Source: Candidatus Poribacteria bacterium
Lineage (GTDB): Bacteria > Poribacteria > WGA-4E > WGA-3G
Assembly: GCA_026702755.1 (NCBI GenBank)
Contig: JAPPBX010000086.1
Coordinates: forward strand, 1-41,726
DNA: 41,726 bases
Reading direction: 5' to 3'
In this document: positions 7,226 through 31,687 of the stretch, piece by piece
Numbering within the stretch: the first letter of the stretch is position 1
How the letters are laid out: each line of letters begins with the position of its first letter
Notes under the pieces: generated by a model
Seen by the model: the letters and a program-made list of their open reading frames with translations, nothing else
Database searches by the model: none
Told to the model about the DNA's origin: nothing
Position numbers and translations under genes: made by a program

Positions 7226-7600
7226 ATGAACCCCAGATGTGAATATATGATACTGTTTGTCATCTGCGTGCTTATATTCGCAGTAATCGGATGTGCGACA
7301 CACACCATCCAACATGACCAAGATGTTGAAGCCTTCTATAGTCCTTGGTTGAACCAGTCCTTTGAAGAATTTTTGGAGAAGTATCCGGATCCAACACAGT
7401 CAATCCCTATAGGTCAAGGCAACTATAGGCATACTTACGTTTACGATATTGAATCACAAACTGAAATTGCTATCAATCTATTAGCGACAATAGGAGACAC
7501 AAATACGGGGCACGACGATTACTACCATATCTATGTTTATGTGAACAGTGCCGGGGTTATCTATAAGATGGATTACCGACGCAAATCCGAGACATGGTAA
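7226..7600 (+). CDS. Small lipoprotein of unknown function
   Basis: This 124-residue protein has a short N-terminal tail, a hydrophobic segment (about 9-20) and a lipobox VIGC with the modified cysteine near residue 23, so it is predicted to be lipid-anchored outside the inner membrane. A strong AAGGAGGA lies 8 bases before the ATG, which supports expression. The mature part has a motif-like SFEEFLEKYPDPTQ and a tyrosine/aspartate-rich C-terminal half with strand-like segments ending in the basic KMDYRRK. I do not recognise a family. It stands alone between a repeat element and a terminator-like palindrome. Confidence 0.75.
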   Translation: MNPRCEYMILFVICVLIFAVIGCATHTIQHDQDVEAFYSPWLNQSFEEFLEKYPDPTQSIPIGQGNYRHTYVYDIESQTEIAINLLATIGDTNTGHDDYYHIYVYVNSAGVIYKMDYRRKSETW

Positions 7601-7889: not shown

Positions 7890-9593
7890 ATGAAGAGGTA
7901 CATTTTTCTCGAAGCAGCAACCCTTGCCATCTTTGTAGTAGCCTTAGTCCTTGTTGCGATACCGAGCAGGGTTCCAGCCAACGCCGGGACAGAAGATATC
8001 CAACCTGTCACCAACGAGATGCTGCTTTCAGCACAAGACGATCCCGAAAGTTGGTTGATGTATGGGCGGGACTACAGAAGTTGGCGATACAGTCAACTGA
8101 CAGAAGTTAACACCGAAAACGTCAACAGACTTGTTCCGAAATGGGCATTCCAAATTGGCACACCCTACGATAAATTTGAATGTACCCCACTTGTCGTTGA
8201 CGGCGTGATGATCATCACAACGCCTTATAGCACAATCTACGCTGTGAACGCAAGAACTGGTAAGGAAATATGGCGGTACGATTATGAACTTCCCGACGAT
8301 TTGGCGATCTGCTGCGGTATGGTGAACCGAGGGGCTGCCATTCTCGGCGATAAAATCTTCTGGACAACACTTGATGCCCATCTCCTCGCGCTTGATGTGA
8401 AAACCGGCACGGTGTTGTGGGATAGAGTTGTCGGCGATCTGACCAACGCCGAGTCCCTCACTGTTGCACCGTTAGTTGTTAAGGACAAAGTGGTTGTCGG
8501 TATATCAGGTGCGGAGTACGGCATCCGCGGTTATATTGATGCCTATTACGCTGAAACGGGTGAACAAGCATGGAGATTTTACACCGTCCCTTCAAAAGAC
8601 GAACCCGGTGGTGACACATGGGAAGGCGATTCATGGATGACAGGCGGCGGATCCGCTTGGGTCACGGGTTCCTACGACCCGGAATTGAATCTCGTCTACT
8701 GGGGTACGGGTAATCCGGCACCAGACTGGAACGGCGACGTTCGGAAGGGCGACAACCTCTACACAGACTGCATCGTCGCGTTGGATGCCGATACAGGAAA
8801 ACTCAAATGGTACTTCCAAGCGACACCGCACGATCTGTGGGATTGGGACGGCGTGAGTGAACCTGTATTGATTGATATGGAAATTGACGGCGCACCAGTT
8901 AAAGCGTTGATGCAAGCGAATCGCAACGGTTACTTCTACGTCCTTGACAGAACGAATGGCAAATTTTTATATGCGGCACCTTACTGCGAACAGAACTGGT
9001 CTGCTGGACTCGACGAAAACGGTCGTCCGACTGTCAAACCCGGTGTGTCTACTTCAGAGGAAGGCACGATTCGCGTCTGTCCGGGTGTAGAAGGCGGCAA
9101 GAACTGGTCCCCCTCAGCCTATAATCCGCTCACAAACTACCTCTACGTTCCTTCGCTGGAACTCTGTGGCTCCTTTCATCAAGGTCGCGTTTTCTATCTG
9201 AAAGGATTGCCCTATCTCGGAAGTGGTATGACAGCAGAGAGAGACGAAGCTGGCGATATGAAGATGTGGGGACACATTAGCGCGATCGATATTTCTACAG
9301 GTGAGATTAAATGGCGGCACAAGACGAACTTTCCACAATGGGGCGGGTGTCTCACAACAGCGGGCGGTCTCGTTTTTTCGGGTGATTTAGAGGGACGATT
9401 TATGGCACTATCAGCGGAAACCGGTGAAGTACTTTGGGATTTCCAGGCCGGCTCCGGTGTTTTCGCACCCCCCATTACCTACGAACTTGACGGCGTCCAA
9501 TACGTTGCGGTAGCGTCAGGTGCCGTGAAATATGCTGAAGTTAATGCGCGTCAAGGTGGAACCCTCTTTGTGTTCGCGCTTTTTGATGAGTAG
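7890..9593 (+). CDS. PQQ-dependent alcohol dehydrogenase with lanthanide-type Asp-x-Asp site (XoxF/ExaF-like)
   Basis: This periplasmic quinoprotein should oxidise an alcohol and pass electrons to a cytochrome c. I chose ATG 7890 over in-frame 7806 because GGAGGTGG lies just before it and a signal peptide follows (hydrophobic about 11-24). The 567-residue protein has repeated W-docking propeller motifs. The vicinal disulfide pair is C141-C142 (ICCGM), which contacts PQQ in this family. Predicted metal ligands are E209 (GAEYGIRG), N275 (GTGNPAPDW) and catalytic D318 in HDLWDWDG. D320, two residues later, is the extra aspartate that marks rare-earth-dependent XoxF/ExaF/PedH enzymes; calcium enzymes have Ala or Ser there. 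Binding-protein and cytochrome genes follow. Substrate (methanol, ethanol or other) cannot be read from the sequence. Confidence 0.9.
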   Translation: MKRYIFLEAATLAIFVVALVLVAIPSRVPANAGTEDIQPVTNEMLLSAQDDPESWLMYGRDYRSWRYSQLTEVNTENVNRLVPKWAFQIGTPYDKFECTPLVVDGVMIITTPYSTIYAVNARTGKEIWRYDYELPDDLAICCGMVNRGAAILGDKIFWTTLDAHLLALDVKTGTVLWDRVVGDLTNAESLTVAPLVVKDKVVVGISGAEYGIRGYIDAYYAETGEQAWRFYTVPSKDEPGGDTWEGDSWMTGGGSAWVTGSYDPELNLVYWGTGNPAPDWNGDVRKGDNLYTDCIVALDADTGKLKWYFQATPHDLWDWDGVSEPVLIDMEIDGAPVKALMQANRNGYFYVLDRTNGKFLYAAPYCEQNWSAGLDENGRPTVKPGVSTSEEGTIRVCPGVEGGKNWSPSAYNPLTNYLYVPSLELCGSFHQGRVFYLKGLPYLGSGMTAERDEAGDMKMWGHISAIDISTGEIKWRHKTNFPQWGGCLTTAGGLVFSGDLEGRFMALSAETGEVLWDFQAGSGVFAPPITYELDGVQYVAVASGAVKYAEVNARQGGTLFVFALFDE

Positions 9594-9714
9594 CCATCAG
9601 CCATCGGTTATCGGCTTTCAGATAGAGAGCGTTGTGCCATTGTCATCGTCAGCAAGTGCCACACGAACTACTGCTGTTCTCACTGCAAAGCAAGTTGAAA
9701 AAGGAGATAGCCCC

Positions 9715-10590
9715 GTGAAACACTATATCACTTTGTGGGTCTCGCTTTTTACAGTCCTCGTTTTGATATTGCCGAACGCAAACGCTAATAATACATTGGA
9801 GGAGATTCGGAAAAAGGGTGTTTTAACAGTGTGTGTGGATGTCCGAAATCTACCCTATTCTAATGCGAACCCGGAACTCCCTGGATTAGACGTTGAGATC
9901 GCACATCTGCTGGCAGAGGGACTTGGCGTTAAGCTGGAACTTCATTGGCTTAACACGCTTCGCGATAGCCTGCTCGCTGATATGTTAGAGGGACACTGCG
10001 ATTGTGTGATCGGCATCCCAATTGAGGAGCGCGCGATGAGTGAATCCATCCAATTAGGTAAGCGCGTTGACTTCTCGAAACCGTATTACGGGACCGGCTA
10101 TGTGTTAGTAAAGCGGAAAAACAACCCACAATCGCCTAAGACTTTGAATGACATCAAATCAGAGATGATTGGCGCAGAAGGCGGATCTATTGCAAGTGAT
10201 GTCCTTCGGCAGCAGGGGTATAATCGCCGCGTCTACGGCTCACAAATCGCTGTTCTGGACGCTATAAAGAAGGGACAAGTCGCTTACGGATGTGTCTGGG
10301 CAAACGCCGGTTGGCTGATAGAAAAAGGTTCACGAATTCAGCAAGCAGAACAGACAGACACTGTCTATCCCGAATTGGAAATTGTTAAGGGGTACATACC
10401 AGAACCTCGTTTCCGTTGGAATGTCTCTATCGCTTTCAGCAAAGGGACACCGACACGAAAAACACAAGATTTTCAAGAGGCTGTTAACAAAATCATCGAA
10501 GAGAAATGGAGCGCGGAGAAACTCAAAGAACTCTGTGAGAAGTACCATTTACCTTACTTCACTCCATTTCAGGAGGATGAAAAGAAATGA
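9715..10590 (+). CDS. Periplasmic binding protein associated with the quinoprotein dehydrogenase (XoxJ/MxaJ-like)
   Basis: GTG 9715 is chosen because AAGGAGAT (9700-9707) precedes it and a clean signal peptide follows, ending near NANA; the frame stays open upstream to 9532 but that part lacks sense. The 291-residue product is a family-3 solute-binding-like protein. Its start (GVLTVCVDVRNLPYSN) and the block GHCDCVIGIP match the type found beside methanol and other PQQ dehydrogenases (MxaJ/XoxJ), rather than amino-acid uptake systems. No permease or ATPase gene accompanies it. Known XoxJ proteins are thought to help activate or mature the dehydrogenase; that role here is inferred from context. 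Its stop overlaps the next gene's start (ATGA), so translation is probably coupled. Confidence 0.82.
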   Translation: MKHYITLWVSLFTVLVLILPNANANNTLEEIRKKGVLTVCVDVRNLPYSNANPELPGLDVEIAHLLAEGLGVKLELHWLNTLRDSLLADMLEGHCDCVIGIPIEERAMSESIQLGKRVDFSKPYYGTGYVLVKRKNNPQSPKTLNDIKSEMIGAEGGSIASDVLRQQGYNRRVYGSQIAVLDAIKKGQVAYGCVWANAGWLIEKGSRIQQAEQTDTVYPELEIVKGYIPEPRFRWNVSIAFSKGTPTRKTQDFQEAVNKIIEEKWSAEKLKELCEKYHLPYFTPFQEDEKK

Positions 10591-11552
10591 TGTACGCCAC
10601 TCACAAGTTTGTAAAGGTGTGTTGTCAGTCTATATCTAAACTGTGTGAACGAACAATTTCGACCTCATGCATAGCGTGCGGCGTTTTCCTTCTCTTTTCA
10701 GGCGTTGGTTTCTTCCTTTTTTCTGCTGTGAACGCCGAAGATCTGGAGGTAGACAGGGCACCTGCGGCACCGAGAGAAGACACCACTGAGGAAGATGTTA
10801 TAGACGGCGCTTTCTATTTCCGTTTAATGTGTTGGGGGTGTCATGCAGGAGAGACACGCGGTACGGAGGCACCGGACCTCTTCAAACCGCAATGGCTTTA
10901 CGGATGGACGGATGACGGTATCTTCCAGACAATATTCAACGGACTTCCGGGAACGCGGATGCAAAAGTTCGGTGGTAAACTCTCTGACGAAGCGATTAAC
11001 ATGATTGTTGGTTACGTCCGATCGGAACAAGCAAAAGCCGCAGGCGTTTCCGTAGAGGAAACAAAACCTTCTGAGGAATGGACACCTTATATGGAGGGCG
11101 ATGTCAAAGCAGGAGAAACTATCTTCTTCTCAGACGGATATGCTTGTGGTAAATGCCATACAGTTCACGGCAGAGGTGCCACTGGTACTGGCGGCGAGAT
11201 AGGTCCCGATTTGACCTATATAGCGCGCACGCGTTCCCCGCAATTCATTGTGGAATCCACCCTCAATCCGCGTGCCTACATCGCTGATGCGTACGAATTG
11301 CTCACTATTTTCACCAAAGATGGAAAGGAAATTACGGGCAGGAAACGGTATCTGTACGATCACAGAGGGCGTAAGAATGATGAGGTTGTGCAGATACTTG
11401 ATAGTTCAGGGAAGTTGTGGACGACTTACTATAAAAAAGATATAAGGAGCACCAGCGTTCCACAAGCAGGCGTTATGCCTGAAAACTATGCTGATATTCT
11501 TTCAGTAAAGCAGATGCATGACCTTCTGGCATATCTGTTCACGTTGAAATAG
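10587..11552 (+). CDS. Two-haem c-type cytochrome, likely electron acceptor of the PQQ dehydrogenase
   Basis: This 321-residue exported protein has a long N-terminus and a hydrophobic stretch ending near SAVNA. Two haem-binding motifs are visible: CWGCH near residue 82 and CGKCH near 188. The first domain resembles a class I cytochrome c with a likely methionine ligand (GTRMQKFGGKLSD). The second has GPDLTYIARTRSPQFIVEST and the pattern NPRAYIADAYE, resembling the haem-binding domain common in Planctomycetes/Verrucomicrobia proteins. An AGGAGG (10571-10576) precedes the ATG, which overlaps the previous stop. Position and type fit a XoxG-like electron acceptor, although XoxG proteins usually carry one haem, so the second domain may pass electrons onward. 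Confidence 0.85.
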   Translation: MMYATHKFVKVCCQSISKLCERTISTSCIACGVFLLFSGVGFFLFSAVNAEDLEVDRAPAAPREDTTEEDVIDGAFYFRLMCWGCHAGETRGTEAPDLFKPQWLYGWTDDGIFQTIFNGLPGTRMQKFGGKLSDEAINMIVGYVRSEQAKAAGVSVEETKPSEEWTPYMEGDVKAGETIFFSDGYACGKCHTVHGRGATGTGGEIGPDLTYIARTRSPQFIVESTLNPRAYIADAYELLTIFTKDGKEITGRKRYLYDHRGRKNDEVVQILDSSGKLWTTYYKKDIRSTSVPQAGVMPENYADILSVKQMHDLLAYLFTLK

Positions 11553-11764: not shown

Positions 11765-12568
11765 ATGATTCGTGTAATTATTAATGGGGCATGCGGACGT
11801 ATGGGACGGCTCATTATCCAAGGTGTCTCCCAACAAGCCGATATGGAACTTGTCGGCGCGATTGAATATCCTGAACACCCACAAATCGGGAGCGATGCGG
11901 GTGTCGTCGCAGGTATCGGCGATATCGGTGTCCCCATCACAGGTGAACTCGACGACCTACTTCAAAATGCTGATGTCGTCATCGAATTCTCCAAACCTGA
12001 AGCAACCATTGAACACCTCCGACAAGTCGTCAATGCCGACAAAGCGATGATAATCGCAACAACCGGATATGATCCTGACGAGCTGGAAACGGTCAAAGCA
12101 CTCGCCTCACAGATCCGCTGCGTGATGGCACCGAACATGAGCCTCGGTGTTAACGTGATGATCCAAGCCCTTGAATTAATCGCTAAGGCTCTTGGAGACG
12201 ATTACGATATTGAGGTCATAGAGGCACACCACAACCACAAAGCAGATTCACCGAGTGGCACAGCACTCCGTTTAGCGGAAACTGTCGCTGCGGCATTGGA
12301 TCGAGACTTAGACGAGGTAGGTGTCTACGGCAGACACGGCATTGTCGGTGCGAGACCTAAGAAACAGATCGGCATCCATGCGGTACGAGGCGGTGACATT
12401 GCTGGCGACCATACCGTGCTGTTCGCAACCGAGGGTGAGCAATTGAGTGTTGTCCATCGCGCCCACAGTCCAGAGGCATTCGCCAAAGGGGCGATTCGCG
12501 CAGCGAGATGGGTCGTCGATGCCCCCAAAGGCTTACACGACATCAGTAAAGTCCTTTTTGAGAAGTAA
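11765..12568 (+). CDS. dapB: 4-hydroxy-tetrahydrodipicolinate reductase, first tandem copy
   Basis: DapB reduces the product of DapA with NAD(P)H to tetrahydrodipicolinate, on the route to diaminopimelate and lysine. The 267 residues match family length. The nucleotide-binding loop is GACGRMG (8-14). The catalytic block HHNHK with H155 and H156 is followed by DSPSGTA (161-167), which binds substrate. The C-terminal GRHG...HAVRGGDIAGDHTV is also diagnostic. The ATG follows an A-rich leader with AAGG about 13 bases upstream. A second dapB begins 71 bases downstream. dapA is not in the window; dapL lies 4 kb on. Confidence 0.96.
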   Translation: MIRVIINGACGRMGRLIIQGVSQQADMELVGAIEYPEHPQIGSDAGVVAGIGDIGVPITGELDDLLQNADVVIEFSKPEATIEHLRQVVNADKAMIIATTGYDPDELETVKALASQIRCVMAPNMSLGVNVMIQALELIAKALGDDYDIEVIEAHHNHKADSPSGTALRLAETVAAALDRDLDEVGVYGRHGIVGARPKKQIGIHAVRGGDIAGDHTVLFATEGEQLSVVHRAHSPEAFAKGAIRAARWVVDAPKGLHDISKVLFEK

Positions 12569-12639
12569 TAAGCACGACCTTAACTTCTTAGTAGCAACCC
12601 GACTGACTTAAACGGTGCCGAGAGGTCCATAGTAAAAAA

Positions 12640-13455
12640 ATGATTCGTGTAGTTATTACCGGTGTCTGTGGTCGTATGGGACGGTGCATCACACGAGGCA
12701 TCGCCCAACAATCAGATATGGCACTCGTTGGGGCTATCCAATATCCATCGCATCCACACATCGGAAGTGATGCTGGTGTTGTCGCGGGTATTGGTGAAAT
12801 AGGTGTCCCTATCACGGGTAAACTTGAGGATGTCCTCCAAAACGCTGATGTCGTGATTGAGTTTTCAAAACCGAAAGCGACCTTGGAGCATCTTCAACAG
12901 GTTGTCAATACAGAGAAAGCCATAGTTATCGGAACGACCGGGTTTGATTCTGATGAACTCGCAACCATCAAAGCACTCACCTCTCAGATTCGTTGTGTGA
13001 TGGCACCGAACATGAGCCTCGGTGTCAATGTGATGATTCAAGCACTCGATTTAATTGCAAAAGCTCTTGGAGATGATTATAATATTGAGGTAATAGAAGC
13101 ACATCACAATCACAAATCGGATTCGCCGAGCGGCACTGCACTCCGTTTAGTAGAGACGGTCACTGCATCACTGGAGCGAGACTTAGAAGAGGTGTGCATT
13201 TATGGCAGACACGGCATTGTCGGCGCGAGACCGAAGAAACAGATTGGTATCCATGCGGTGCGTGGCGGTGATATTGCTGGCGATCACACAGTACTGTTTA
13301 CAACTGAAGGTGAGCAATTGCGTATTGTTCACCGTGCGCATAACCCAGAGGCGTATGCCAAGGGTGCGATCCGTGCAGCGAGATGGGTCGTCAATGCGCC
13401 TAAAGGCTTACACGATGTCAGTGAAGTCCTTTTTCATTCTCAGAAACATGACTAA
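12640..13455 (+). CDS. dapB: 4-hydroxy-tetrahydrodipicolinate reductase, second tandem copy
   Basis: A 271-residue paralogue, highly similar to the previous gene along its whole length, again with a GVCGRMG nucleotide loop, the HHNHK catalytic block and DSPSGTA. Both copies therefore look functional. Differences are scattered (for example Q for E in AIQYPSHP, and a different C-terminus ending SQKHD). The spacer between the copies retains little of the leader seen before dapB1. Its last bases overlap the start of the following propeller lipoprotein gene (ATG 13448). Why a cell would keep two DapB enzymes is not evident from the sequence; cofactor preference could differ. Confidence 0.95.
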   Translation: MIRVVITGVCGRMGRCITRGIAQQSDMALVGAIQYPSHPHIGSDAGVVAGIGEIGVPITGKLEDVLQNADVVIEFSKPKATLEHLQQVVNTEKAIVIGTTGFDSDELATIKALTSQIRCVMAPNMSLGVNVMIQALDLIAKALGDDYNIEVIEAHHNHKSDSPSGTALRLVETVTASLERDLEEVCIYGRHGIVGARPKKQIGIHAVRGGDIAGDHTVLFTTEGEQLRIVHRAHNPEAYAKGAIRAARWVVNAPKGLHDVSEVLFHSQKHD

Positions 13456-15472
13456 TCGGATGTTGCAACGTCATTCGCGTGTTTCCTGTGTGTCTGTTGT
13501 CCTCATCATTGCATTATTTATAATCGGATGTGAAGATATAACGTCTAAGGAACAGAGACGGTACAGATGGAAAACCGTCATGGAGGGTGATTGGAGTTCG
13601 CACCTATACGATGTCTATTTTGTAAATGAGAACATAGGATGGGCAGTTGGCAACGCGGTAGACCTAATTCCAAGTCTTGATCATGAAGAGGGTGCGGAAA
13701 GCCTCATTATCCATACAAAAAATGGCGGACAGACGTGGCACAGACAGAGCAGTAGTGCTTTCGGCAGACCGTTGCGAAACGTCTACTTTCGCTCTGCCTT
13801 AGAAGGTTGGTGCACCGGTGAAGGCGGTGTTCTGATCCATACGACAGATGGTGGCAAAACGTGGCAGCACATCGAAACAGGCACAGAAAACAACTTGCAC
13901 GATCTTTTTATAGGCGAGGCTACAGGGTGGATCGTCGGGGATTGGGGCACACTGCTAAAAACAACCGATGGTGGACAGACGTTTACAAAGATTGATGGAA
14001 AGGTGTTCAACAGAAAATCACTGAAAGGTGTCCACTTCGTAAGCGAAAATCTGGGCTGGATTATCACCTACAACACACCGACATCAACACATAATGAAAA
14101 TGCGGGTTACATCTATCAAACAACCGATGGGGGAGAGACCTGGCAAACCCAATTCGAGACAGAAGATGCCCTATTCAACCTTCACTTTATAGACGAACAG
14201 ACGGGCTGGGTTGTCGGCGACCGGCGGAGTGTTTTCGCAACAACTGACGGCGGAGAAACCTGGGAATTTATCACACACGGGACAAATGAACGTCATAAAA
14301 GCAGTTACGGACAACCGGAGTATCTCGGCAAAGAGCCACTACATACCTTTACACTTTACGATATTGACTTCGCGGATGCCCAAAACGGTTGGATTGTCGG
14401 CGACTTAGGGGTGATTCTTCACACCTCATCTGGTGGAAAAGGAAAATGGAAACATCAACGCGGCGGTCCCCGCTTTCACAATAGTGCGGACGCTGTCCTA
14501 TTGGGGCTCGACTTCGTCTCTAAACAATTGGGTTGGGCAGTCGGTGAAAACGGAACCATCCTACACACTCGCAACGGTGGCGTAACATGGGAATCACAAT
14601 CAAGTCCGAGCCACCTCCTTGTTGGTGTTTGTGCCACCTCGTCTGAGGAAGGATACGTCGTTGGAGACCGAGGTTCCATTCTACGAACCGAAGATGGTGG
14701 CGTTGTATGGAACGCACAAGACAGCCGCACGACGGAGTGTTTCGGTGCGACTCACTTTGTGTCCCCACAAGTCGGATGGGCAGTTGCTGAAGCTGGTGTG
14801 ATTCTGCACACGGCAAACGGCGGAAGCGTTTGGCATCGTCAAACTTCAGGGACAGAGCAGGATCTGCTCTCTCTTTTTTTCGTGGACGAAAAAAACGGAT
14901 GGTGTGTAGGCAGTGGCGGCGAAATCATCCACACAAATGATGGCGGGAAAACGTGGAATCGACAAAAGAGCAGAACGACTTGGAATCTTTTTGACGTTCA
15001 CTTTACTTCCAAGCAGCGCGGTTGGGTGGTTGGGATGAATGGCACAATGCTTTCCACAGTTGATGGCGGCACCAATTGGAAGTTGTCATCTATCAGTCGG
15101 CGGCACCCATTCTTTTTCCTCGATGCCGTTACCTTCGTCTCACCAGAAATTGGATGGGTCGTAGGTTTAGATCTACGCAGCTTGGGTATGGATGGGCTGA
15201 TTCTACATACGGAGAACGGCGGAAAAACATGGCAACGCCAAGAGAGTCATACTGCCAATTTTCTTGACGACGTATTTTTTATCTCAGAAACAGAAGGTTG
15301 GATCGTTGGAAAAGAGGGGCTTGTCCTGCACACAAATGATGGCGGGCAAAATTGGAGACCCCAGCACACAGAAACTCGGACAGATTTGAAGGCTATTTAT
15401 ATAAGCAGCAGAGACAGCGGATGGGTGGTTGGTCAAAACGGAACAATTCTCAGGTATGAGGCTGTTCCGTGA
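13448..15472 (+). CDS. Ycf48/BNR-type beta-propeller lipoprotein
   Basis: The chosen start (13448) overlaps the dapB2 stop and gives a signal sequence with lipobox IIGC; the open frame upstream to 13202 lies inside dapB2 and is ignored. The 674-residue protein is built from about a dozen repeats of the form GWxVGxxGxILHTxDGGxTWxxQ, the pattern of Ycf48-like (photosystem II assembly factor) and BNR/sialidase propellers. It should be a lipid-anchored extracytoplasmic propeller, long enough for two rings. Non-photosynthetic bacteria carry many such proteins of unknown role; no enzyme active site is visible. Overlap with dapB2 suggests coupled translation, but the functional link is unclear. Confidence 0.85.
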   Translation: MTNRMLQRHSRVSCVSVVLIIALFIIGCEDITSKEQRRYRWKTVMEGDWSSHLYDVYFVNENIGWAVGNAVDLIPSLDHEEGAESLIIHTKNGGQTWHRQSSSAFGRPLRNVYFRSALEGWCTGEGGVLIHTTDGGKTWQHIETGTENNLHDLFIGEATGWIVGDWGTLLKTTDGGQTFTKIDGKVFNRKSLKGVHFVSENLGWIITYNTPTSTHNENAGYIYQTTDGGETWQTQFETEDALFNLHFIDEQTGWVVGDRRSVFATTDGGETWEFITHGTNERHKSSYGQPEYLGKEPLHTFTLYDIDFADAQNGWIVGDLGVILHTSSGGKGKWKHQRGGPRFHNSADAVLLGLDFVSKQLGWAVGENGTILHTRNGGVTWESQSSPSHLLVGVCATSSEEGYVVGDRGSILRTEDGGVVWNAQDSRTTECFGATHFVSPQVGWAVAEAGVILHTANGGSVWHRQTSGTEQDLLSLFFVDEKNGWCVGSGGEIIHTNDGGKTWNRQKSRTTWNLFDVHFTSKQRGWVVGMNGTMLSTVDGGTNWKLSSISRRHPFFFLDAVTFVSPEIGWVVGLDLRSLGMDGLILHTENGGKTWQRQESHTANFLDDVFFISETEGWIVGKEGLVLHTNDGGQNWRPQHTETRTDLKAIYISSRDSGWVVGQNGTILRYEAVP

Positions 15473-17976: not shown

Positions 17977-20900
17977 ATGACACACATTAACTCTTGTTCA
18001 GCGAGTTTTAGGGATTTGCAAACCACAGCGAAAAACCTCACTTTAATTTTTATCGTAGCCCTTGCGACAGTTTTTGTTTGTGTTGAGGCAAGAAGTGTTG
18101 AGCAAGTTCAAACCTACACCGTTGCCGATGGATTGGTGGGTCCAGTTGTTCCTGTTATTTTCCAAGACAGTCGAGGCGCCCTCTGGTTCGGTTCCAATCA
18201 GGATGGGGTCAGTCGGTTTGATGGGAATACATTTGAATCCCACATTGGGTCCCCGGACACTTCGGAAGACCTACTTGTGCCCGATGGAAAAGCGGGTGCG
18301 CTGCTCGGCGAAACACGACTCATCACCGAAGATAAGTGGGGACATATCTGGTTCCTCACGCGTGTGCCTTCAGAAACCTCAGGCAGAGTCAGTCGGTTTG
18401 ACGGCACTTCAGTCAGCCTTATCAGTAGAGGCAATTGGCTGATCGTTGATCGAAAGGGCGATGTTTGGGTCGGCGACAATCAGAGGCTAACGAAGTATAT
18501 CACCCCAGGCGTTCAACGTCCGTCACAAGCACAGCCAAACGAAATTATAGGCGAGAATCTCGCTCGTTCAGCGACTTTGACAATAAACGTCATCTTTGAA
18601 AGTAAAGATGGCACCATCTGGCTCGGTGGACATGAAGGGGCGGAAGAACAGACCGGTGTAATTTTGAGTTTCCGAGAGACGCGTTGGGTGCGCGAAGTCC
18701 CAGAACCCAGCGATAGTGACCAAGCAAGTGATGAAACAGAAAACCAAATGCCGAGTGTCAGCCAAGGTGCTGGATTCAAACGGTACGATATGGAGAATCT
18801 AAACACCATTGGTACTATCGAAGCGATAGCCGAAGGTCCGAATGGAAACCTCTGGTTCGGTGGCTACAACCTTCTCTTGCGGTTCGATGGGCAGACTTTT
18901 GAACAGGTACTCCCTCTTGCTTGGGGACAAGGCAGCACAAGGACACGTAACCCTTCACTAACCGGGAAGAGAGCGTCAATCCGAAGTGACAAACAAGGAC
19001 GCGTTTGGTTTAGTGATGGACGCACCACAAGGTGGTGGAAGGGTTCACAACATGGAAACCTAACAGGGTTCCTTGAACTTGAAGATGCTTTGGGAAACCT
19101 ATGGATGACGGATGAACTTGGAGCACATCAATACGATAGTACGCTTAATTTAGCTACCGTCTACAGCGAACTCGGAATTGAGGCGATCCATACGATTTTT
19201 GAAGCCGTTGACGGTAAATTGTGGTTCGGCCACAATAACGGGGCAACAGCATTTGACCCAACACCTGTAATTAGCACACATGCAGGACTCGGTACGAATA
19301 GGGTCCGAACGGTGTATGAGGATAGTCGAGGTTATCTCTGGTTTAGTATTCTTGGCGGTGCTACGCGCTATAATCCGCAAACAACAGAACTTACCACGCA
19401 TCTATTCAGAGTAGATTCAGCACAAAACACCTCGTCCCCCAACTCCCAAGTTAACGCCAGTAGTATAGATCGCTCTCGGTTCCCTCGAACTGAAATTGAA
19501 AGAATATTTGAAGTTGGTGGAGATGTCTGGTTTATTGATGAACCGAGAGCGCGCGCTGGCTCTACAAGAGCTACATATACGTTCTTCCGGTTCGCAAGCG
19601 GAAAAGTGGATCAGGTGTCTATTCCTATCCGAATCCAAGTCGGACCCGGCGGCGAAATGTCGGGCGGCAGCACTGATATACACATTATTGAAGGGAAAGA
19701 CGTATGGCTGGCTTTCGGTGGGCATCTCTTCAAAGCAGACAGAACAGGATTACTGCAGCTCACGGACACAGGCTTCCAAAGAATACTCTTTCAACAAACC
19801 GGTCCGGGGACAGTCCCTCAGCCAATAAACGCGCTTGATCACGGCGCAGCCGCCATCACCGATTTATACAAAGATACCAACGAGAGACTCTGGGTACATT
19901 TTGAGAACGGAAAAGTCCTGCGCTATCCGAAAACGATTGCACAATTAAAACCGACAGATCGTCCTATTAAGCCAGAAGTCCTTCCCCTAAAAGCAACAAT
20001 GCTGTTGAAAGCCGCATCGGGAAGCAAATGGTTTTTTAACGCGGTAACAGGAAAGTTGATAATCTGGAGCGACACTGAACTTGGTGGACCAATTCTACTC
20101 GACGGAGAGTCCAGTTCAGCCCCACTCGCAGTATGGAAGGATCCCAAGCAAGAAAATAACCGAATAACTTTCCTTTTCCCTGATGTTCTCAAAACCTATC
20201 ACGGCATAGCCCTCATCTCTGTTGACGATTTTGAACTTGCCGATGTTCAAACTTCTCTAACCTCACAAGAAGGTGTCCTCTGGTTAGCAACATCTCAAGG
20301 AGCCGTTCAATATGATGGGAAGAGAGTCACAAAGTACGCAAGAAAAGAAGACGAATTTCTTGTTAGCAACGTACGAGATGTGATGGAAGATAGCCGTGGA
20401 AATATATGGTTCGCAACATGGGGCGGCGGCATCCTACGCTACGATGGCGAAACCTTCTACCTCCTTACAACGAAAAACGGTTTGGCACATAATAACATCT
20501 CGAAAATTCATGAGTCCTCTGACAAAGACCTCTGGTTCGCAACCGAAGGTGGCGTTACGCACTATACACCGACGATTGGGGGACTCCCATTTTGTCGGTT
20601 AACTGCTTTAGAGGCTGATACAACCTATACTGACCTCTCATCGAGTTTAACGCTACCATCACGCGGATCAAAGACCTTTAATGTGAAAGGCATCAGTCCG
20701 CTCCGTGCTGGACTCTCTTACGAATTTAAATTGACCGGGCTGGATATCCCGACGTGGACCACCCTTTCGGCAGAGGCGTTCTCTCTCTTGAAAACCGGTT
20801 CTGGCGTTCGATCTAATGAGTGGACTGACGCTTCGGCAATCGGATTGCCAAATCAACAACTCCTGCGGGATAGCGGCGTTACACAGGAATTCCAAAACCA

Positions 20901-21930
20901 AAATGGAATTCTGCGCATTCGGTATACAGGTCTCAAAGCGGGAAACTATAACTTCCTCGTCAAGGCGTTCCGTAAAGGTACACCCTACACGGAACCCGCA
21001 GCAGCAGTGGACTTTAGCATCTCACCGCCCTTCTGGACGCGATGGCGCAGATACCTTCCGACACTCATCTTTGTGACCGTCGTCCTTTCTTTAGTTGGAC
21101 GCTTGGTCGTCAATCGCCGACATACGGTGCAGCTGCGCAACGAAATGCGTGAAAAGGAAGAGGCGGACGTGCAACGTATCCGAGATGAGTTGAGTGAAGC
21201 GCAGAATATCCAGATGGGATTGCTACCTACGGAAGCCCCCGATACTAAGGGATTCGATGTCGCGGGGATGTCGGTGCCCGCAACGCAGGTAGGCGGCGAC
21301 TTTTACGACTACCTCACCGTTGCGAATGGGCAAACCGCGATTGCCGTGGCAGATGCCGCAGGAAAAGGATTACGAGGCGCGATGAATGCCGTGCTAACGA
21401 ACGGGATGCTATATGAAGTCGCGCGTTTTAAATCTGAAGCGGACATCATTCTCACCGATCTCAATAGGGGGTTAGCACCCCGCATGTACGGACCGAGTTT
21501 CATCGCACTCAACCTCGCAATCCTTGATGAAGACAAAAAACAGATCGACTATGCCAACGGTGGGCAACCCTATCCTGTTCTCAAGCGAGGCACGAACGTC
21601 TTTGAGATCGACAACAGCGACCTCCCCCTTGGCAGTATGAAAAGGGTCGAGTATGAATCCATCACTTTCGATTTAAAAGAGGGTGATGTCTTGATTTTCC
21701 ATTCAGATGGTCTCATTGAAGCTCTCAATACGGATGAGGAAATGTATGGAACGGAACGCTTAAAGGAATTAGTTTCAAAAATCTCGGATAGTTACACTGC
21801 GGCGGAAGTAATTCAAAGCATCGTTTCGGATGTTCAAGGCTTCGTCGGTGACGCGGAACAATATGACGATATGACAATTGTTGTCATCAAAGTCCCGGGA
21901 CATACTGACACCACAGGCAATGGCACGTAA
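17977..21930 (+). CDS. One-piece sensor: extracytoplasmic propeller, Y_Y_Y-like domain, membrane helix, SpoIIE/PP2C phosphatase
   Basis: The 1317-residue protein starts with a signal/anchor helix (about 22-38). Up to about residue 890 it carries many two-component-regulator propeller repeats (for example VIFQDSRGALWFGSNQDG and VMEDSRGNIWFATWGGG). A Y_Y_Y-like domain follows (about 900-1015), then a transmembrane helix near 1026-1045, a charged coiled-coil linker, and a SpoIIE-type PP2C serine phosphatase. The phosphatase motifs are GGDFYDY near 1106, DAAGKG near 1128, HSDGLIEA and YDDMTIVVI. The metal-binding aspartates are present, so it should be active. In RsbU-like systems such phosphatases act on anti-sigma-factor antagonists. 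Here the output sits on the sensor itself, replacing the usual histidine kinase. The ligand is unknown; no sigma-factor genes are adjacent. Confidence 0.88.
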   Translation: MTHINSCSASFRDLQTTAKNLTLIFIVALATVFVCVEARSVEQVQTYTVADGLVGPVVPVIFQDSRGALWFGSNQDGVSRFDGNTFESHIGSPDTSEDLLVPDGKAGALLGETRLITEDKWGHIWFLTRVPSETSGRVSRFDGTSVSLISRGNWLIVDRKGDVWVGDNQRLTKYITPGVQRPSQAQPNEIIGENLARSATLTINVIFESKDGTIWLGGHEGAEEQTGVILSFRETRWVREVPEPSDSDQASDETENQMPSVSQGAGFKRYDMENLNTIGTIEAIAEGPNGNLWFGGYNLLLRFDGQTFEQVLPLAWGQGSTRTRNPSLTGKRASIRSDKQGRVWFSDGRTTRWWKGSQHGNLTGFLELEDALGNLWMTDELGAHQYDSTLNLATVYSELGIEAIHTIFEAVDGKLWFGHNNGATAFDPTPVISTHAGLGTNRVRTVYEDSRGYLWFSILGGATRYNPQTTELTTHLFRVDSAQNTSSPNSQVNASSIDRSRFPRTEIERIFEVGGDVWFIDEPRARAGSTRATYTFFRFASGKVDQVSIPIRIQVGPGGEMSGGSTDIHIIEGKDVWLAFGGHLFKADRTGLLQLTDTGFQRILFQQTGPGTVPQPINALDHGAAAITDLYKDTNERLWVHFENGKVLRYPKTIAQLKPTDRPIKPEVLPLKATMLLKAASGSKWFFNAVTGKLIIWSDTELGGPILLDGESSSAPLAVWKDPKQENNRITFLFPDVLKTYHGIALISVDDFELADVQTSLTSQEGVLWLATSQGAVQYDGKRVTKYARKEDEFLVSNVRDVMEDSRGNIWFATWGGGILRYDGETFYLLTTKNGLAHNNISKIHESSDKDLWFATEGGVTHYTPTIGGLPFCRLTALEADTTYTDLSSSLTLPSRGSKTFNVKGISPLRAGLSYEFKLTGLDIPTWTTLSAEAFSLLKTGSGVRSNEWTDASAIGLPNQQLLRDSGVTQEFQNQNGILRIRYTGLKAGNYNFLVKAFRKGTPYTEPAAAVDFSISPPFWTRWRRYLPTLIFVTVVLSLVGRLVVNRRHTVQLRNEMREKEEADVQRIRDELSEAQNIQMGLLPTEAPDTKGFDVAGMSVPATQVGGDFYDYLTVANGQTAIAVADAAGKGLRGAMNAVLTNGMLYEVARFKSEADIILTDLNRGLAPRMYGPSFIALNLAILDEDKKQIDYANGGQPYPVLKRGTNVFEIDNSDLPLGSMKRVEYESITFDLKEGDVLIFHSDGLIEALNTDEEMYGTERLKELVSKISDSYTAAEVIQSIVSDVQGFVGDAEQYDDMTIVVIKVPGHTDTTGNGT

Positions 21931-27320: not shown

Positions 27321-27453
27321 CTCTTGAAGATTGAAAGTCGGGTTTAGTGTGCATTTTACTTGGATATCCCCTGTGTGTCAAGCAGAATTCCTTCTTTGTA
27401 GAAGACGATTAATTGCTGAAAATTGGATAGTTCTGTGCCTCCAAACAGATACG

Positions 27454-27483
27454 TTGACAAAAATCGCGTATATTACGTATAAT
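27454..27483 (+). promoter_or_regulatory. Consensus sigma-70 promoter before the WD40 gene pair
   Basis: TTGACA (27454-27459) and TATAAT (27478-27483) both match consensus exactly, 18 bases apart. A start near 27490 gives a leader of about 170 bases to the ATG at 27661. The rest of the 340-base gap between the divergent genes (27321-27660) shows no gene or obvious repeat; the open frame across it from 27331 looks non-coding. Confidence 0.75.
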
Positions 27484-27660
27484 TACAATATCCGACTTTG
27501 CGAACAATTAAAAGCTCATGTCTTTCACCTATCATGCAGCGATCCTTCTTCAACACATCTCTTTTTCACCTCCAACGACTCTCAATACTGTGTATGTGGA
27601 CTTTGGGGCAAGAGAAATTCTAATTTTGTCAGGCTATTCGCAACAAAAGGAGATATTTTC

Positions 27661-29658
27661 ATGGAAAATAGAAAACCGTTAATCCCTGCCCTGAGACCCC
27701 TTGACGACACAGATGTGACAACTTGGGAACTTCCTGAGGAAGCAATCGGCAGGTTAGGCAGGGGAATAATAGCTGATTTGGCGTTTTCGCCGGATGGTGA
27801 ATCTCTCGCAGTCGCAACTACTATTGGGATCTGGCTCTATGAACTTGCTACCATGAAACCGATTGCATTGTGGGAAACCGAAAGGGGGTTGGTTTCTACT
27901 GTCTCCTTTTCACCCAATGGACAATGGATCGCCGCCAGCAACTGGGACGGTATCATCAAGGTATGGGAGACAGAGACGCAACGGTGCACCGCCAAAATAC
28001 AAGGATGGCATGAGCGTATCTCCCAACTTACCTTCTCACCGGATAGCCAATACCTCGCGGCATCCGGCAGGGCTTACGGTGACGTTTATGTATGGAACAC
28101 AAAAACGGGTATGCACGTTGCAAGTTTCACAGTCGCGGGTACTCCGAAAAAAGGTGAACGGCTACCCGCCAGCTTTCCTGTTTGCTTTTCACCCGACGGG
28201 CAGTATCTCGCCTATGTTTCGGGTCGAATATCGCTTGCTGTCCGGCATATAGAGACGAAAGAACATATCGCGCTTCTGAAACATTTCCCCCGAAAACACA
28301 TACAAGGACTTGCCTTTTCATCGTGTGGACGGTTCCCTGCTGTTGGGAGTCAAAACACATCCACCAACCGTCAGAATACTGAGTTGCGGGTGTGGGATAT
28401 TGATAAAGAATCCCTTGAGATGAATGATTCAAACTACGGTGGAGATAAGTTGATACCTGCCTACTTGCCTGATGGGACCTTGCGGGTTGCCGACATATAT
28501 AAGGGCAAAGTGGTCCTGTGGGACGCATCCCGAAAAGAGAAACTTGATAACTTTGAATATCAAGGCAGCACCAGCAAGGCTTTCAGGTTTTCGTCTGATG
28601 GGCAGCAATTCGCAATCGCCACGGCATGTGAGGTGCGCGTATGGCACGCGGATGCCCCGCTCACAGTAGCGTCTCATCTGATGCATACACGCATAGTTCG
28701 GACACTGTTCTTTATGCAAGATGGCAAGACATTGGTGAGCGGACACGACGGCAAAAGCGGCATTGTGTTCTGGGATATTGCCCAAAAACGAGCGCAGCAA
28801 ACGTTTAGTACATCTTACGGAAAGTGCGCTTTATCCCCGTGTGAAGAGATGTTGGCTACCACTGTTGGAGAGAATGGGGAAACGATTGAAGTCTTGAATG
28901 TTGCTTCAGGAACACCGGTTACAACACTCACTAAACATAAACAGATTGTAACTGCGCTTGCGTTCTCACAGACGGGTGAACACCTTGTTAGCGGGGATAC
29001 AGAGGGAAATTTGTCCGTGTGGACTGTTGAGTCTTGGCGAGAGTCGCGCGAACTCATCGGACATACTAATGGGATTACAGCAGTGGCATTTCATCCGAAT
29101 GGTTCACAAGTTGTCACGGCATCCCGCGATCACACAGCCAACGTCTGGGACTTTGAGAGGGGTGAACGGCTCGCTTCGCTTCCCTTAGCCGAGGAATCGG
29201 ATGTTTCTCTGTATAGAGGCGACCAGCGGCAAATCCGGCGCATCTTAAATCGCCTGAGTCAAGGTTACAGCCATAAGTCCACCCTTCATTCAATCACGTT
29301 TTCTCCATCTGGCGATCTTATCACTGGCGGGCTGCATCGTGAGATACGTTTGTGGGATGCGACAACTTATGAGACGCGTATGGCAATAATCCCACCGGAT
29401 ACTTGTCAGCGACCTAATGTAGTTATATTTTCGCCGTGCGGACGCTATCTTGTCTCAGGTTCTTGGTGGCAAGAAGGACAAGAAAAGGTGTCTATCCGGT
29501 TATGGGACGTTTCAACAGGTGAGAATATTGCGACCTTCTGGAGCCATCCGACAGATATTCAGGACCTCGCATTTTCACCAGACGGTTCGCTCTTAGCAAG
29601 TGGAAGTTTTGACGGCACCGTTCTCCTATGGGATATGAAACCTTTTATTGGTTCTTAA
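27661..29658 (+). CDS. WD40-repeat propeller protein, first tandem copy
   Basis: ATG 27661 is chosen because AAAAGGAGA lies 8 bases upstream and the tandem paralogue starts at the equivalent MEN; residues encoded upstream of it lack family character. The 665-residue protein has no signal peptide and is made of WD40 repeats with the typical AFSPDGxxLAxGxxDGxIxxWD pattern (for example LAFSPDGSLLASGSFDG near the end). There are enough repeats for two seven-bladed propellers. It should be a cytoplasmic binding scaffold. No catalytic domain is present. It is followed 34 bases later by a similar gene. Confidence 0.88.
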   Translation: MENRKPLIPALRPLDDTDVTTWELPEEAIGRLGRGIIADLAFSPDGESLAVATTIGIWLYELATMKPIALWETERGLVSTVSFSPNGQWIAASNWDGIIKVWETETQRCTAKIQGWHERISQLTFSPDSQYLAASGRAYGDVYVWNTKTGMHVASFTVAGTPKKGERLPASFPVCFSPDGQYLAYVSGRISLAVRHIETKEHIALLKHFPRKHIQGLAFSSCGRFPAVGSQNTSTNRQNTELRVWDIDKESLEMNDSNYGGDKLIPAYLPDGTLRVADIYKGKVVLWDASRKEKLDNFEYQGSTSKAFRFSSDGQQFAIATACEVRVWHADAPLTVASHLMHTRIVRTLFFMQDGKTLVSGHDGKSGIVFWDIAQKRAQQTFSTSYGKCALSPCEEMLATTVGENGETIEVLNVASGTPVTTLTKHKQIVTALAFSQTGEHLVSGDTEGNLSVWTVESWRESRELIGHTNGITAVAFHPNGSQVVTASRDHTANVWDFERGERLASLPLAEESDVSLYRGDQRQIRRILNRLSQGYSHKSTLHSITFSPSGDLITGGLHREIRLWDATTYETRMAIIPPDTCQRPNVVIFSPCGRYLVSGSWWQEGQEKVSIRLWDVSTGENIATFWSHPTDIQDLAFSPDGSLLASGSFDGTVLLWDMKPFIGS

Positions 29659-29692
29659 GGTATTGCTTACCCCAATAAAATCGGGGTATTTG

Positions 29693-31687
29693 ATGGAAAA
29701 TCAACACTCACAGACAACCATACAGTCTACGCAGACAAACAGCGATGTGACAACTTGGGAACTCCCCGATGGCGCAATTGCCCGATTGGGACAAGGACTC
29801 ATATTTGACATGGCGTTTTCACCGGATAACGCGTCTCTTGCTGTTGGAACTCGTGTCGGGGTATGGATGTATGAACTCGACACCATGCAGCCCGTCACAC
29901 TGTTTGAAACCGAACGAGGCATGATTTCTAACATCGTCTTTTCACCCGATGGGCAATGGGTTGCCACCAGCAACGCGGACGGTATCATCAATGTGCGAGA
30001 AATAGAGACCCAGCAGCGTGTCGCGAAGATACAAGGCTGGCACGATGGCACCTCCCGACTTGCTTTTTCACCGGATAGCCAATACATCGCTGCATCCGGC
30101 TACGGACACGGCGATGTTTACGTCTGGTGCGCAAAAACCGGTCAACACTTCGTAAGTTTTGAAGTGAGAGTCACACTTAAGGAAGGTGAACGCCCTCCTA
30201 CCTATTTCCCACTCTGCTTTTCACCCGATGGAGAGCTCCTCGCTTATCGTTCTGGCGGGACTAACATTAATGTTCAAAACCTAAAAACAAAAGAACGCTT
30301 CGCTTATCTGAAGTCAGAGGGTGAGCTGCGCGAATCAGGAGATATGTATGATCTCGCATTTTCACCTTGTGGTCAGTTTCTTGCTGCGAGCCTTCAGGAT
30401 CGAACAACACGTGAGAATATTGAGGTGCAAGTGTGGAACATTGATAAAGAGATATTGGAGACAACTTACACAGACTACGGCGGAACCCGGGCGATTCTCG
30501 CTTATTCCCCTGATGGTGCATTACGGGTTGCCGATGTTTATGAAGACAAAGTAGTGATGTGGAACGCGTCCCGGGGTGAAAAACTTGATACCATTGAATA
30601 TCAAGGAAAAGGTAGGACGGAACAATGTATCTCTACGGATGGACAGCAGTTCGCAATTCTCACTGACTGCGATATCCGCGTGTGGCGTGCAGGCTCCCCT
30701 ACCATAGTAGCACCGCTCACAGTGCCTCATCATGTACCCGACTCTCTGTTTTTTTATCAATCGGGCAAGATGTTGGTTTGCAAATACTGGAATGAAGGTG
30801 TCGTTTTCTGGAATGTTGTTCAGAAACAGGTGATACCTCCCCCGATCCCACCAGAATGCGGGGGCAAAAGGTGTGCGCTGTCCCCTTGTGAAGAATTGTT
30901 GGCTCTCATCGGAGAGGATGGACAAACACTTGAAGTCTGGAACATCACGTCCGGAACCCGAATAGCAGAACTCACCGAACATCAGAGTTTAATCACCACC
31001 GTGGTGTTCTCGCCGTCAGGGGAACACCTCATCAGTGGAGATATAGATGGAAAACTTGTTGTGTGGCGTGTCCAACATTGGGAAAAGCAGTATGCATTTA
31101 TAGGGCATACCGATCCGCTTCGGGCAGCAGCCTTTCACCCGAACGGAAAGCAATTCGCTACGACTGACGGAAGGAGTATATTTCTTTGGGACGTTACGAG
31201 TGGTGAACAGCTTGGTTCACCTTCTGTAGACTCCACCTTTGTTGCCCTATATAAAGGAGATATGCGACAAATCCAGCGGCAAACTCAGTCACGTAACAAA
31301 CCTTCAAAGAATCTCCATTCAATTGCGTTTTCACCTTGCGGCACTTTATTGGCTGGTGGGTTATTCGGTGGGATTCATCTATGGGATGCTGCAACTTTAG
31401 AGCCGCGCATGGGGATGATTCTACCTGCGAGTTGCTCCTGGGTTGTTGGTGTTGTTGTGTTTTCTCCATGTGGTCGGTATCTTGCCTCTGGTTCTTGGTG
31501 GAACAAAACAGACAAAGTCTCCGTTCGTTTATGGGAGGTTGCCACTGGGGAAAACATCCATACCTTCTGGGGGCATACCTCAGATGTTCAAAATCTCGCT
31601 TTTTCAAAGGATGGCGAACTCTTGGCAAGTAGCAGTTATGATGGCACCGTCCTGCTTTGGGATATGAAACCGTTTATAAATTCTTAA
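29693..31687 (+). CDS. WD40-repeat propeller protein, second tandem copy
   Basis: A 664-residue paralogue of the preceding gene. Both begin MEN, share TTWELP near residue 25 and end VLLWDMKPF plus a few residues, so the duplication is full length. ATG 29693 is preferred over 29648 from that alignment. A GGGG run about 7 bases upstream may act as a weak ribosome binding site and is partly paired in a small hairpin (CCCC/GGGG, 29671-29687). Repeats follow the same WD40 pattern. The function is probably scaffolding; partner unknown. Confidence 0.87.
   Translation: MENQHSQTTIQSTQTNSDVTTWELPDGAIARLGQGLIFDMAFSPDNASLAVGTRVGVWMYELDTMQPVTLFETERGMISNIVFSPDGQWVATSNADGIINVREIETQQRVAKIQGWHDGTSRLAFSPDSQYIAASGYGHGDVYVWCAKTGQHFVSFEVRVTLKEGERPPTYFPLCFSPDGELLAYRSGGTNINVQNLKTKERFAYLKSEGELRESGDMYDLAFSPCGQFLAASLQDRTTRENIEVQVWNIDKEILETTYTDYGGTRAILAYSPDGALRVADVYEDKVVMWNASRGEKLDTIEYQGKGRTEQCISTDGQQFAILTDCDIRVWRAGSPTIVAPLTVPHHVPDSLFFYQSGKMLVCKYWNEGVVFWNVVQKQVIPPPIPPECGGKRCALSPCEELLALIGEDGQTLEVWNITSGTRIAELTEHQSLITTVVFSPSGEHLISGDIDGKLVVWRVQHWEKQYAFIGHTDPLRAAAFHPNGKQFATTDGRSIFLWDVTSGEQLGSPSVDSTFVALYKGDMRQIQRQTQSRNKPSKNLHSIAFSPCGTLLAGGLFGGIHLWDAATLEPRMGMILPASCSWVVGVVVFSPCGRYLASGSWWNKTDKVSVRLWEVATGENIHTFWGHTSDVQNLAFSKDGELLASSSYDGTVLLWDMKPFINS

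What the first reader, a model, noticed from the sequence alone, without database searches (positions are those of the whole stretch)
7890..11552. Putative lanthanide-dependent alcohol dehydrogenase module (xoxF-xoxJ-xoxG-like)
The dehydrogenase has D318-W-D320; the second aspartate is the established marker of rare-earth PQQ enzymes. E209 and N275 fill the other expected metal positions, and the C141-C142 pair is intact. The next two genes, coupled by ATGA, encode the MxaJ/XoxJ-type binding protein and a cytochrome c, the set known from methylotrophs. No methylotrophy genes are near, so the substrate may be a multicarbon alcohol, which would extend lanthanide metabolism to a lineage where I do not know it to be described.
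Basis: partly seen in the sequence, partly recalled or inferred. Interest (0 to 1): 0.75.

Follow-up and report, generated by a model that had tools for sequence, protein, structure and literature searches.

The report
Rare-earth-type alcohol dehydrogenase in Poribacteria
A sponge-symbiont bacterium carries a conserved three-gene module for oxidising an alcohol outside the cytoplasm with an enzyme that has the rare-earth-metal signature, yet it cannot make the enzyme's cofactor PQQ and probably takes it from its neighbours; the enzyme family is known, but I found no earlier report from this phylum.

Summary
DH 7890-9593 is a TIGR03075 PQQ alcohol dehydrogenase with every metal and PQQ residue checked, including D318-W-D320. 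It is followed by a solute-binding protein (SBP, 9715-10590) and a cytochrome c (10587-11552). The organism is a Candidatus Poribacteria member (sponge symbionts). The module sits at one chromosomal site (lipA upstream, dapB downstream), is under purifying selection (DH dN/dS about 0.05) and occurs in 26 of 38 genomes of the genus; elsewhere it was deleted several times, sometimes leaving a cytochrome remnant.

Corrections: the DH is not XoxF; it groups with Acidobacteriota/Planctomycetota ADHs, and trees joining it to XoxF/MxaF or PedH/ExaA are disfavoured. The SBP resembles XoxJ but scores far below that family's cut-off. The cytochrome is diheme, not XoxG. pqqB and pqqC are absent from the genus by model, and no recognisable PqqU was found, so PQQ probably comes from outside by an unidentified route. 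A planctomycete relative keeps DH, SBPs, cytochrome and pqqB together, which supports PQQ dependence. Lanthanide use, substrate and SBP function are inferred only. Verdict: new member of a known kind with an interesting cofactor-supply question.

The parts
7890..9593 (+). PQQ-dependent alcohol dehydrogenase with lanthanide-type site (E209, N275, D318, D320; C141-C142 pair; R147, W244, R345, W484 PQQ pocket), N-terminal signal/anchor
   Evidence: AlphaFold model mean pLDDT 84.7, best PDB match PedH Z 53.8
9715..10590 (+). Divergent MxaJ/XoxJ-like periplasmic binding protein (GTG start, signal peptide, motif CxDxxNLPYSN)
   Evidence: best NCBIfam model TIGR03871, 69.5 bits, cut-off 212; hhalign to S. 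meliloti XoxJ prob 98.4
10587..11552 (+). Diheme cytochrome c (cbb3-III-type heme domain plus TIGR02603 heme domain), ATGA overlap with the SBP gene; probable electron acceptor

Best explanation
The three genes encode a periplasmic alcohol-oxidising chain. The dehydrogenase folds as a PQQ beta-propeller and binds PQQ with, most likely, a lanthanide held by E209, N275 and D320, with D318 as the base. It oxidises an alcohol, more likely multicarbon than methanol, and passes electrons to the diheme cytochrome c. The XoxJ-like protein is proposed to help load cofactor or metal, or otherwise activate the enzyme, as suggested for XoxJ. The cell does not make PQQ by the known pathway and uses PQQ from other members of the sponge community, entering by diffusion or by a transporter unlike PqqU. 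Shown: gene content, residues, fold class, conservation, selection, absence of pqq genes by model. Inferred: metal, substrate, electron path, function of the SBP, source of PQQ.
For: DH is 171 bits over the TIGR03075 cut-off; every metal and PQQ position checked matches XoxF/PedH, while the Ca enzymes have A, S or T at D320. Best structural match is the lanthanide enzyme PedH, Z 53.8, rmsd 1.6 over 522 residues, although Ca enzymes follow within about 2 Z units. All three genes are present in the same order in 19 other Poribacteria loci; median dN/dS 0.05 DH, 0.11 SBP, 0.115 cytochrome. A Planctomycetota relative (L065) has DH, a protein of three SBP domains, diheme cytochrome and PqqB (351.7 bits, cut-off 245) in one cluster, tying this module type to PQQ. 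Acidobacteriota relatives keep a homologous diheme cytochrome next to the DH. PedH, with the same aspartate, is lanthanide-dependent (PMC5487730); xoxJ and xoxG are needed for XoxF function in M. extorquens (PMC7391723). PQQ users without synthesis are common: only 23% of PqqU-bearing bacteria have the pathway (PMC12124388). ExaA-type PQQ-ADH is among the more often detected proteins in a sponge metaproteome (PMC6081418; the passage read does not assign it to Poribacteria).
Against: No pqqC or pqqB by model and only sub-threshold radical-SAM hits for pqqE; none of the TonB receptors aligned carries the PqqU signature and none was found to track the module. A D-x-D motif is not proof of lanthanides: E. 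coli membrane glucose dehydrogenase has it and was characterised with other metals (PMC11996626). Repeated loss of the module shows that it is dispensable. No lanthanide uptake gene was identified. Distant Acidobacteriota relatives keep D-x-D while losing C-C and E209, so D-x-D can persist without a complete site.
Confidence: 0.62

Rival explanations
1. A PQQ alcohol dehydrogenase that uses Ca2+ (or is promiscuous) in vivo; the D-x-D motif does not determine the metal in this clade.
For: Seawater Ca is about 10^-2 M and Ln about 10^-11 M; E. coli m-GDH has D-x-D and was characterised as binding Ca, Mg, Zn or Sr (PMC11996626). No Ln uptake gene was identified here.
Against: D320 is invariant in every Poribacteria copy that covers it and in the 23-sequence alignment A2; in the characterised XoxF and PedH enzymes that aspartate goes with lanthanide use.
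Confidence: 0.2
2. An 'empty quinoprotein': a PQQ-enzyme homologue that works without PQQ, because the organism cannot make it.
For: No PQQ synthesis genes by model and no PqqU; NCBI has a family of Acidobacteria empty quinoproteins, TIGR04528, that the DH hits at 518 bits.
Against: 518 bits is below that family's cut-off of 650, while TIGR03075 is above its own. The distant relatives that score better on TIGR04528 than on TIGR03075 (L107, L111, L119) have lost the C-C pair and E209; the Poribacteria DH keeps them all. A relative has pqqB in the same gene cluster.
Confidence: 0.1
3. A true XoxF methanol dehydrogenase system serving methanol oxidation.
For: Same gene types (DH, XoxJ-like, cytochrome c) and the same active-site residues as XoxF.
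Against: The DH falls outside the XoxF/MxaF clade (100/100); forcing it in costs 31 log-likelihood units, AU p 0.038. It lacks the MDH TWGW segment and has W406 like ADHs where MDHs have Q. Cytochrome is diheme, 29 bits to MoxG against a cut-off of 148. No Fae.
Confidence: 0.05
4. The SBP belongs to an ordinary amino-acid ABC importer and sits here by chance.
For: General amino-acid SBPs outrank XoxJ by phmmer E-value and by structural Z.
Against: The best family model is TIGR03871 in every copy tested, by about 15 to 34 bits over the next; it shares the CxDxxNLPxS motif with S. meliloti XoxJ; no permease or ATPase is among the neighbouring genes; it keeps its place next to the DH in 19 Poribacteria loci and near the DH in a planctomycete.
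Confidence: 0.15

Closest known systems
PedH / ExaF (lanthanide-dependent PQQ-ADH type 2b; PDB 6zcw, 6zcv)
   Same: Same fold (best PDB match), same metal ligands including D-x-D, 45% identity over the structural alignment, ADH-like pocket with W at position 406.
   Different: Separate clade: PedH groups with ExaA at 100/100; forcing the Poribacteria DH in is disfavoured (AU p 0.006). PedH has Q where this DH has E97.
XoxF-XoxJ-XoxG methanol dehydrogenase system
   Same: DH with the same lanthanide site, neighbouring XoxJ-like SBP, c-type cytochrome.
   Different: DH not in the XoxF/MxaF clade, no TWGW segment, shorter; SBP far below the TIGR03871 cut-off; cytochrome diheme; no pqqB/pqqC and no Fae found.
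Acidobacteriota PQQ-ADHs with adjacent diheme TIGR02603-type cytochrome (Bryobacterales and others)
   Same: Up to 53% identity, D-x-D, homologous cytochrome next door.
   Different: Cytochrome mostly lies upstream, no SBP found by similarity; positions W484 and E97 of the PQQ site are replaced in the closest ones.
Planctomycetota groundwater module L065 (JACOUH010000258.1)
   Same: DH 55% identical with D-Y-D, MoxJ-like SBP, diheme cytochrome, same order.
   Different: Three SBP domains in one protein, an extra ORF between DH and SBP, and pqqB present.

Membership tests
PQQ-dependent methanol/ethanol dehydrogenase family (TIGR03075) | Score over the curated cut-off (480 bits) | tested here: met
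   651.5 bits, residues 38-545
PQQ-dependent methanol/ethanol dehydrogenase family (TIGR03075) | Vicinal cysteines, catalytic aspartate, PQQ ligands | tested here: met
   C141-C142, D318, R147, W244, R345, W484 aligned with solved enzymes
PQQ-dependent methanol/ethanol dehydrogenase family (TIGR03075) | PQQ bound and needed for activity | not testable with these tools
   Biochemistry needed
Lanthanide-dependent PQQ-ADH | Second aspartate (D-x-D) in the metal site | tested here: met
   D318-W-D320, invariant across Poribacteria
Lanthanide-dependent PQQ-ADH | Activity or structure with a lanthanide | not testable with these tools
   No assay possible; D-x-D is not sufficient proof
XoxF methanol dehydrogenase | Falls in the XoxF/MxaF clade | tested here: not met
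   Outside; XoxF/MxaF 100/100, constrained tree AU p 0.038. XoxF3 references were not available
XoxF methanol dehydrogenase | MDH-type active-site segment (TWGW, Q at query W406) | tested here: not met
   AWVTG and W, as in ADHs
PedH/ExaF/ExaA clade | Falls in the PedH/ExaA clade | tested here: not met
   Constrained tree AU p 0.006
XoxJ/MxaJ (TIGR03871, TIGR03870) | Score over the curated cut-off | tested here: not met
   69.5 of 212 and 42.6 of 258 bits
XoxJ/MxaJ (TIGR03871, TIGR03870) | CxDxxNLPxS motif and location beside a quinoprotein | tested here: met
   Motif shared with S. meliloti XoxJ; beside the DH in all complete loci
XoxG / MoxG cytochrome cL | Monoheme, TIGR03872 over cut-off | tested here: not met
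   Two CxxCH; 29.1 of 147.8 bits
Acido-empty-quinoprotein group A (TIGR04528) | Score over the curated cut-off (650 bits) | tested here: not met
   517.8 bits
PQQ producer | pqqB, pqqC (and pqqE) present | tested here: not met
   pqqC none in the genus; pqqB none over cut-off in 85 Poribacteria; pqqE-model hits all below cut-off, as in control genomes
PqqU-type PQQ importer carrier | PqqU homologue with Y/F/W99, R304, R365 | tested here: not met
   At most one weak hit (1.4e-11) in 24 genus genomes; no receptor aligned has the signature, though that alignment is of very diverse proteins; G049 of another family does have it

The most novel reading that the evidence does not exclude
A lineage of sponge symbionts runs a rare-earth alcohol dehydrogenase entirely on PQQ (and lanthanide) supplied by neighbouring microbes, taken in by a route other than the known PQQ transporter PqqU, possibly with the XoxJ-like protein receiving the cofactor in the periplasm; the module is then lost wherever that supply or the substrate is missing.
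Probability: 0.4. Interest if true: 0.6.

Novelty: new member of a known kind. Interest (0 to 1): 0.42.

Why it matters
Lanthanide-type PQQ dehydrogenases are already known from many phyla (14 of 33 in one ocean survey), so one more phylum is an extension, not a break. What makes it more than a list entry is the combination: a strongly conserved lanthanide-type enzyme with its own cytochrome and helper protein in a lineage that cannot make PQQ by the known pathway and has no recognisable PQQ importer. If confirmed, PQQ would be a shared good inside sponges, and rare-earth-dependent carbon oxidation would extend to this group of animal symbionts. It also offers a divergent XoxJ-like protein with which to test what XoxJ does.

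Tried and rejected
Searched for a TonB receptor that tracks the module, as a candidate PQQ or lanthanide importer: all main receptor classes of module-bearing G000, G009, G021 and G028 also occur in the closed module-less genome G005, apart from a single receptor of G021. One duplicated receptor (L217 type) looked absent from G005, but G017, which has the module, shows a single hit at that locus and module-less G003, G015 and G025 show two; rejected. The small ORF 7226-7600 upstream was dropped as part of the module: among the Poribacteria loci its protein was found only in L046. The fold search could not separate XoxJ from amino-acid binding proteins by Z (6onp ranks 28th at Z 18.6, though with the highest identity in the list, 28%). 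The papers' supplementary tables could not be read, so a mention of Poribacteria there is possible.
Full report
OBSERVATION. The window belongs to a 5.84-Mb genome in 126 contigs. Its nearest named relatives are all Candidatus Poribacteria (DH identity 82-94%), the sponge-associated phylum. The ATGA overlap joins SBP and cytochrome; between DH and SBP lie 121 bp.

THE DEHYDROGENASE. It scores 651.5 bits on TIGR03075 (cut-off 480). In an alignment with solved enzymes it has E209, N275, D318 and D320 exactly where XoxF and PedH have their metal ligands and catalytic base; MxaF has A, ExaA S and ADH-IIB T in place of D320. C141-C142, R147, W244, R345, W484 and E97 are also present. The AlphaFold model (pLDDT 84.7) is closest to PedH (Z 53.8, 1.6 A over 522 residues), followed at Z 49-52 by both Ca and Ln enzymes, so the fold does not decide the metal. 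In a careful tree of 37 sequences the XoxF/MxaF clade and the PedH/ExaA clade are each 100/100, and the Poribacteria enzymes lie outside both, among Acidobacteriota and Planctomycetota enzymes (95/98 for that side). Forcing them into XoxF/MxaF gives AU p 0.038, into PedH/ExaA p 0.006. The value 0.038 is not strong, a quick tree had been seen before, and XoxF3 was not represented. The pocket agrees with the tree: the MDH segment TWGW is replaced by AWVTG, and W406 matches ADHs rather than the MDH glutamine. I therefore call it a lanthanide-type ADH, not XoxF, and take a multicarbon alcohol as the likelier substrate; this last point is inference.

THE BINDING PROTEIN. Its best NCBIfam model is the quinoprotein-associated TIGR03871, 69.5 bits, next best 51; the relatives L061 and L065 behave alike. 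This is far under the cut-off of 212, which a real S. meliloti XoxJ passes (296.9). It shares with that XoxJ the motif CxDxxNLPxS and the CD(V/C)VIG segment; the solved amino-acid binding proteins printed do not have the NLP motif. Structural Z does not separate it from amino-acid binders. It is a candidate to work like XoxJ but is not a member by the curated test.

THE CYTOCHROME. Two heme sites; TIGR02603 over its cut-off, MoxG only 29 bits. The closest solved relatives by sequence are diheme proteins 7zs0-7zs2. Most Acidobacteriota relatives carry a homologue beside their DH, usually directly upstream, so the DH-cytochrome pairing is old and the cytochrome is the natural electron acceptor (inferred).

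DISTRIBUTION AND HISTORY. The DH is in 26 of 38 genomes of the genus, in one genome of another family (G049), as a stretch full of stops in G042 (51% identity), and in no other of the 85 Poribacteria genomes searched. In 19 named loci all three genes stand in the same order; lipA lies upstream in 13 of them and dapB downstream in 18, and the others are mostly cut by contig ends (L060, with 2.8 kb upstream, shows no lipA). One SBP copy (L064) has an in-frame stop over the stretch used, and a further locus (L066) has DH cut at residue 323 followed by cytochrome residues 106-321 with no SBP, as after an internal deletion. In the module-less genomes whose contigs cover the site, lipA and dapB stand close together, and G010, G015, G064 and G063 keep 3' pieces of the cytochrome gene of differing length. 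G064 and G063 belong to other genera of the family, so the module was probably already at this site in the ancestor of these genera. A tree of three neighbouring genes needs five changes of module state over 26 genomes (four forced by well-supported branches). The module is thus old, inherited at a fixed site and repeatedly deleted. Where kept, it is under purifying selection: median dN/dS 0.051, 0.110 and 0.115 for DH, SBP and cytochrome; dS is above 1, so these ratios are rough.

THE COFACTOR PROBLEM. pqqC has no match in the genus, single-contig genomes with the module (G009, G021, G028) included. pqqB has no match over cut-off in 85 Poribacteria; the weak matches look like other metallo-beta-lactamase-fold proteins, since control genomes show them too. 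pqqE gives only sub-threshold radical-SAM hits, also in controls. The E. coli PqqU query finds nothing better than 1.4e-11 in 24 genomes of the genus, though each has 8-20 TonB receptor plugs; in contrast G049, which has the module, has a 35%-identical PqqU with F99, R304 and R365 and a glutamate at 274, and a partial pqqC at a contig edge (G049 is rated 7% contaminated). In the Planctomycetota relative L065 the DH, an 807-aa protein with three SBP domains, the diheme cytochrome and pqqB (351.7 bits, cut-off 245) lie in one cluster. This is the best genetic evidence that the module type is PQQ-dependent. I conclude that the window's organism most likely scavenges PQQ. In E. coli PqqU is essential only when external PQQ is below about 100 nM (PMC12124388), so diffusion is possible; another transporter is also possible.

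LITERATURE. Lanthanide-type PQQ-DHs occur in 14 of 33 marine phyla and in 20% of marine MAGs (PMC11996626); XoxF3 systems with XoxJ and XoxG occur in Acidobacteria, Gemmatimonadetes and Verrucomicrobia (PMC10875860). In the library searched, no paper was found that ties Poribacteria to such an enzyme; supplements and subscription journals were not searchable. A sponge metaproteome lists ExaA-type PQQ-ADH among its more frequent proteins (PMC6081418); which symbiont makes it is not stated in the passage read.

VERDICT. Observation confirmed; interpretation partly supported; a new member of a known kind in a phylum where I found no report, with a real open question about where its PQQ comes from. 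Lanthanide use, substrate and the SBP's role remain inferences.

Noticed in passing
L065 9084-11507: A single 807-aa planctomycete protein made of three tandem MoxJ-like solute-binding domains, between a lanthanide-type ADH and a diheme cytochrome c with pqqB downstream.
   Followed up: partly
11765-13455: Two tandem dapB-like genes directly downstream of the module; some other Poribacteria appear to have one copy.
   Followed up: no
L066 1787-3357: Decaying module: DH cut after residue 323 and followed by cytochrome residues 106-321, SBP missing, as after an internal deletion.
   Followed up: partly
L150 (G049): PqqU homologue with the PQQ signature and glutamate at the K274 position, the variant proposed to carry PQQ together with a metal ion.
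   Followed up: partly
13373-41705: Window rich in beta-propeller and repeat proteins: YCF48-type protein (about 13373-15472), SpoIIE phosphatase with regulator-propeller repeats (17977-21930), two adjacent WD40 proteins (27331-31687) and a Kelch protein (40710-41705).
   Followed up: no
Acidobacteriota loci L096-L125: Distant relatives keep D-x-D while losing the Cys-Cys pair and usually E209, so D-x-D alone is a poor marker of a complete lanthanide site.
   Followed up: partly
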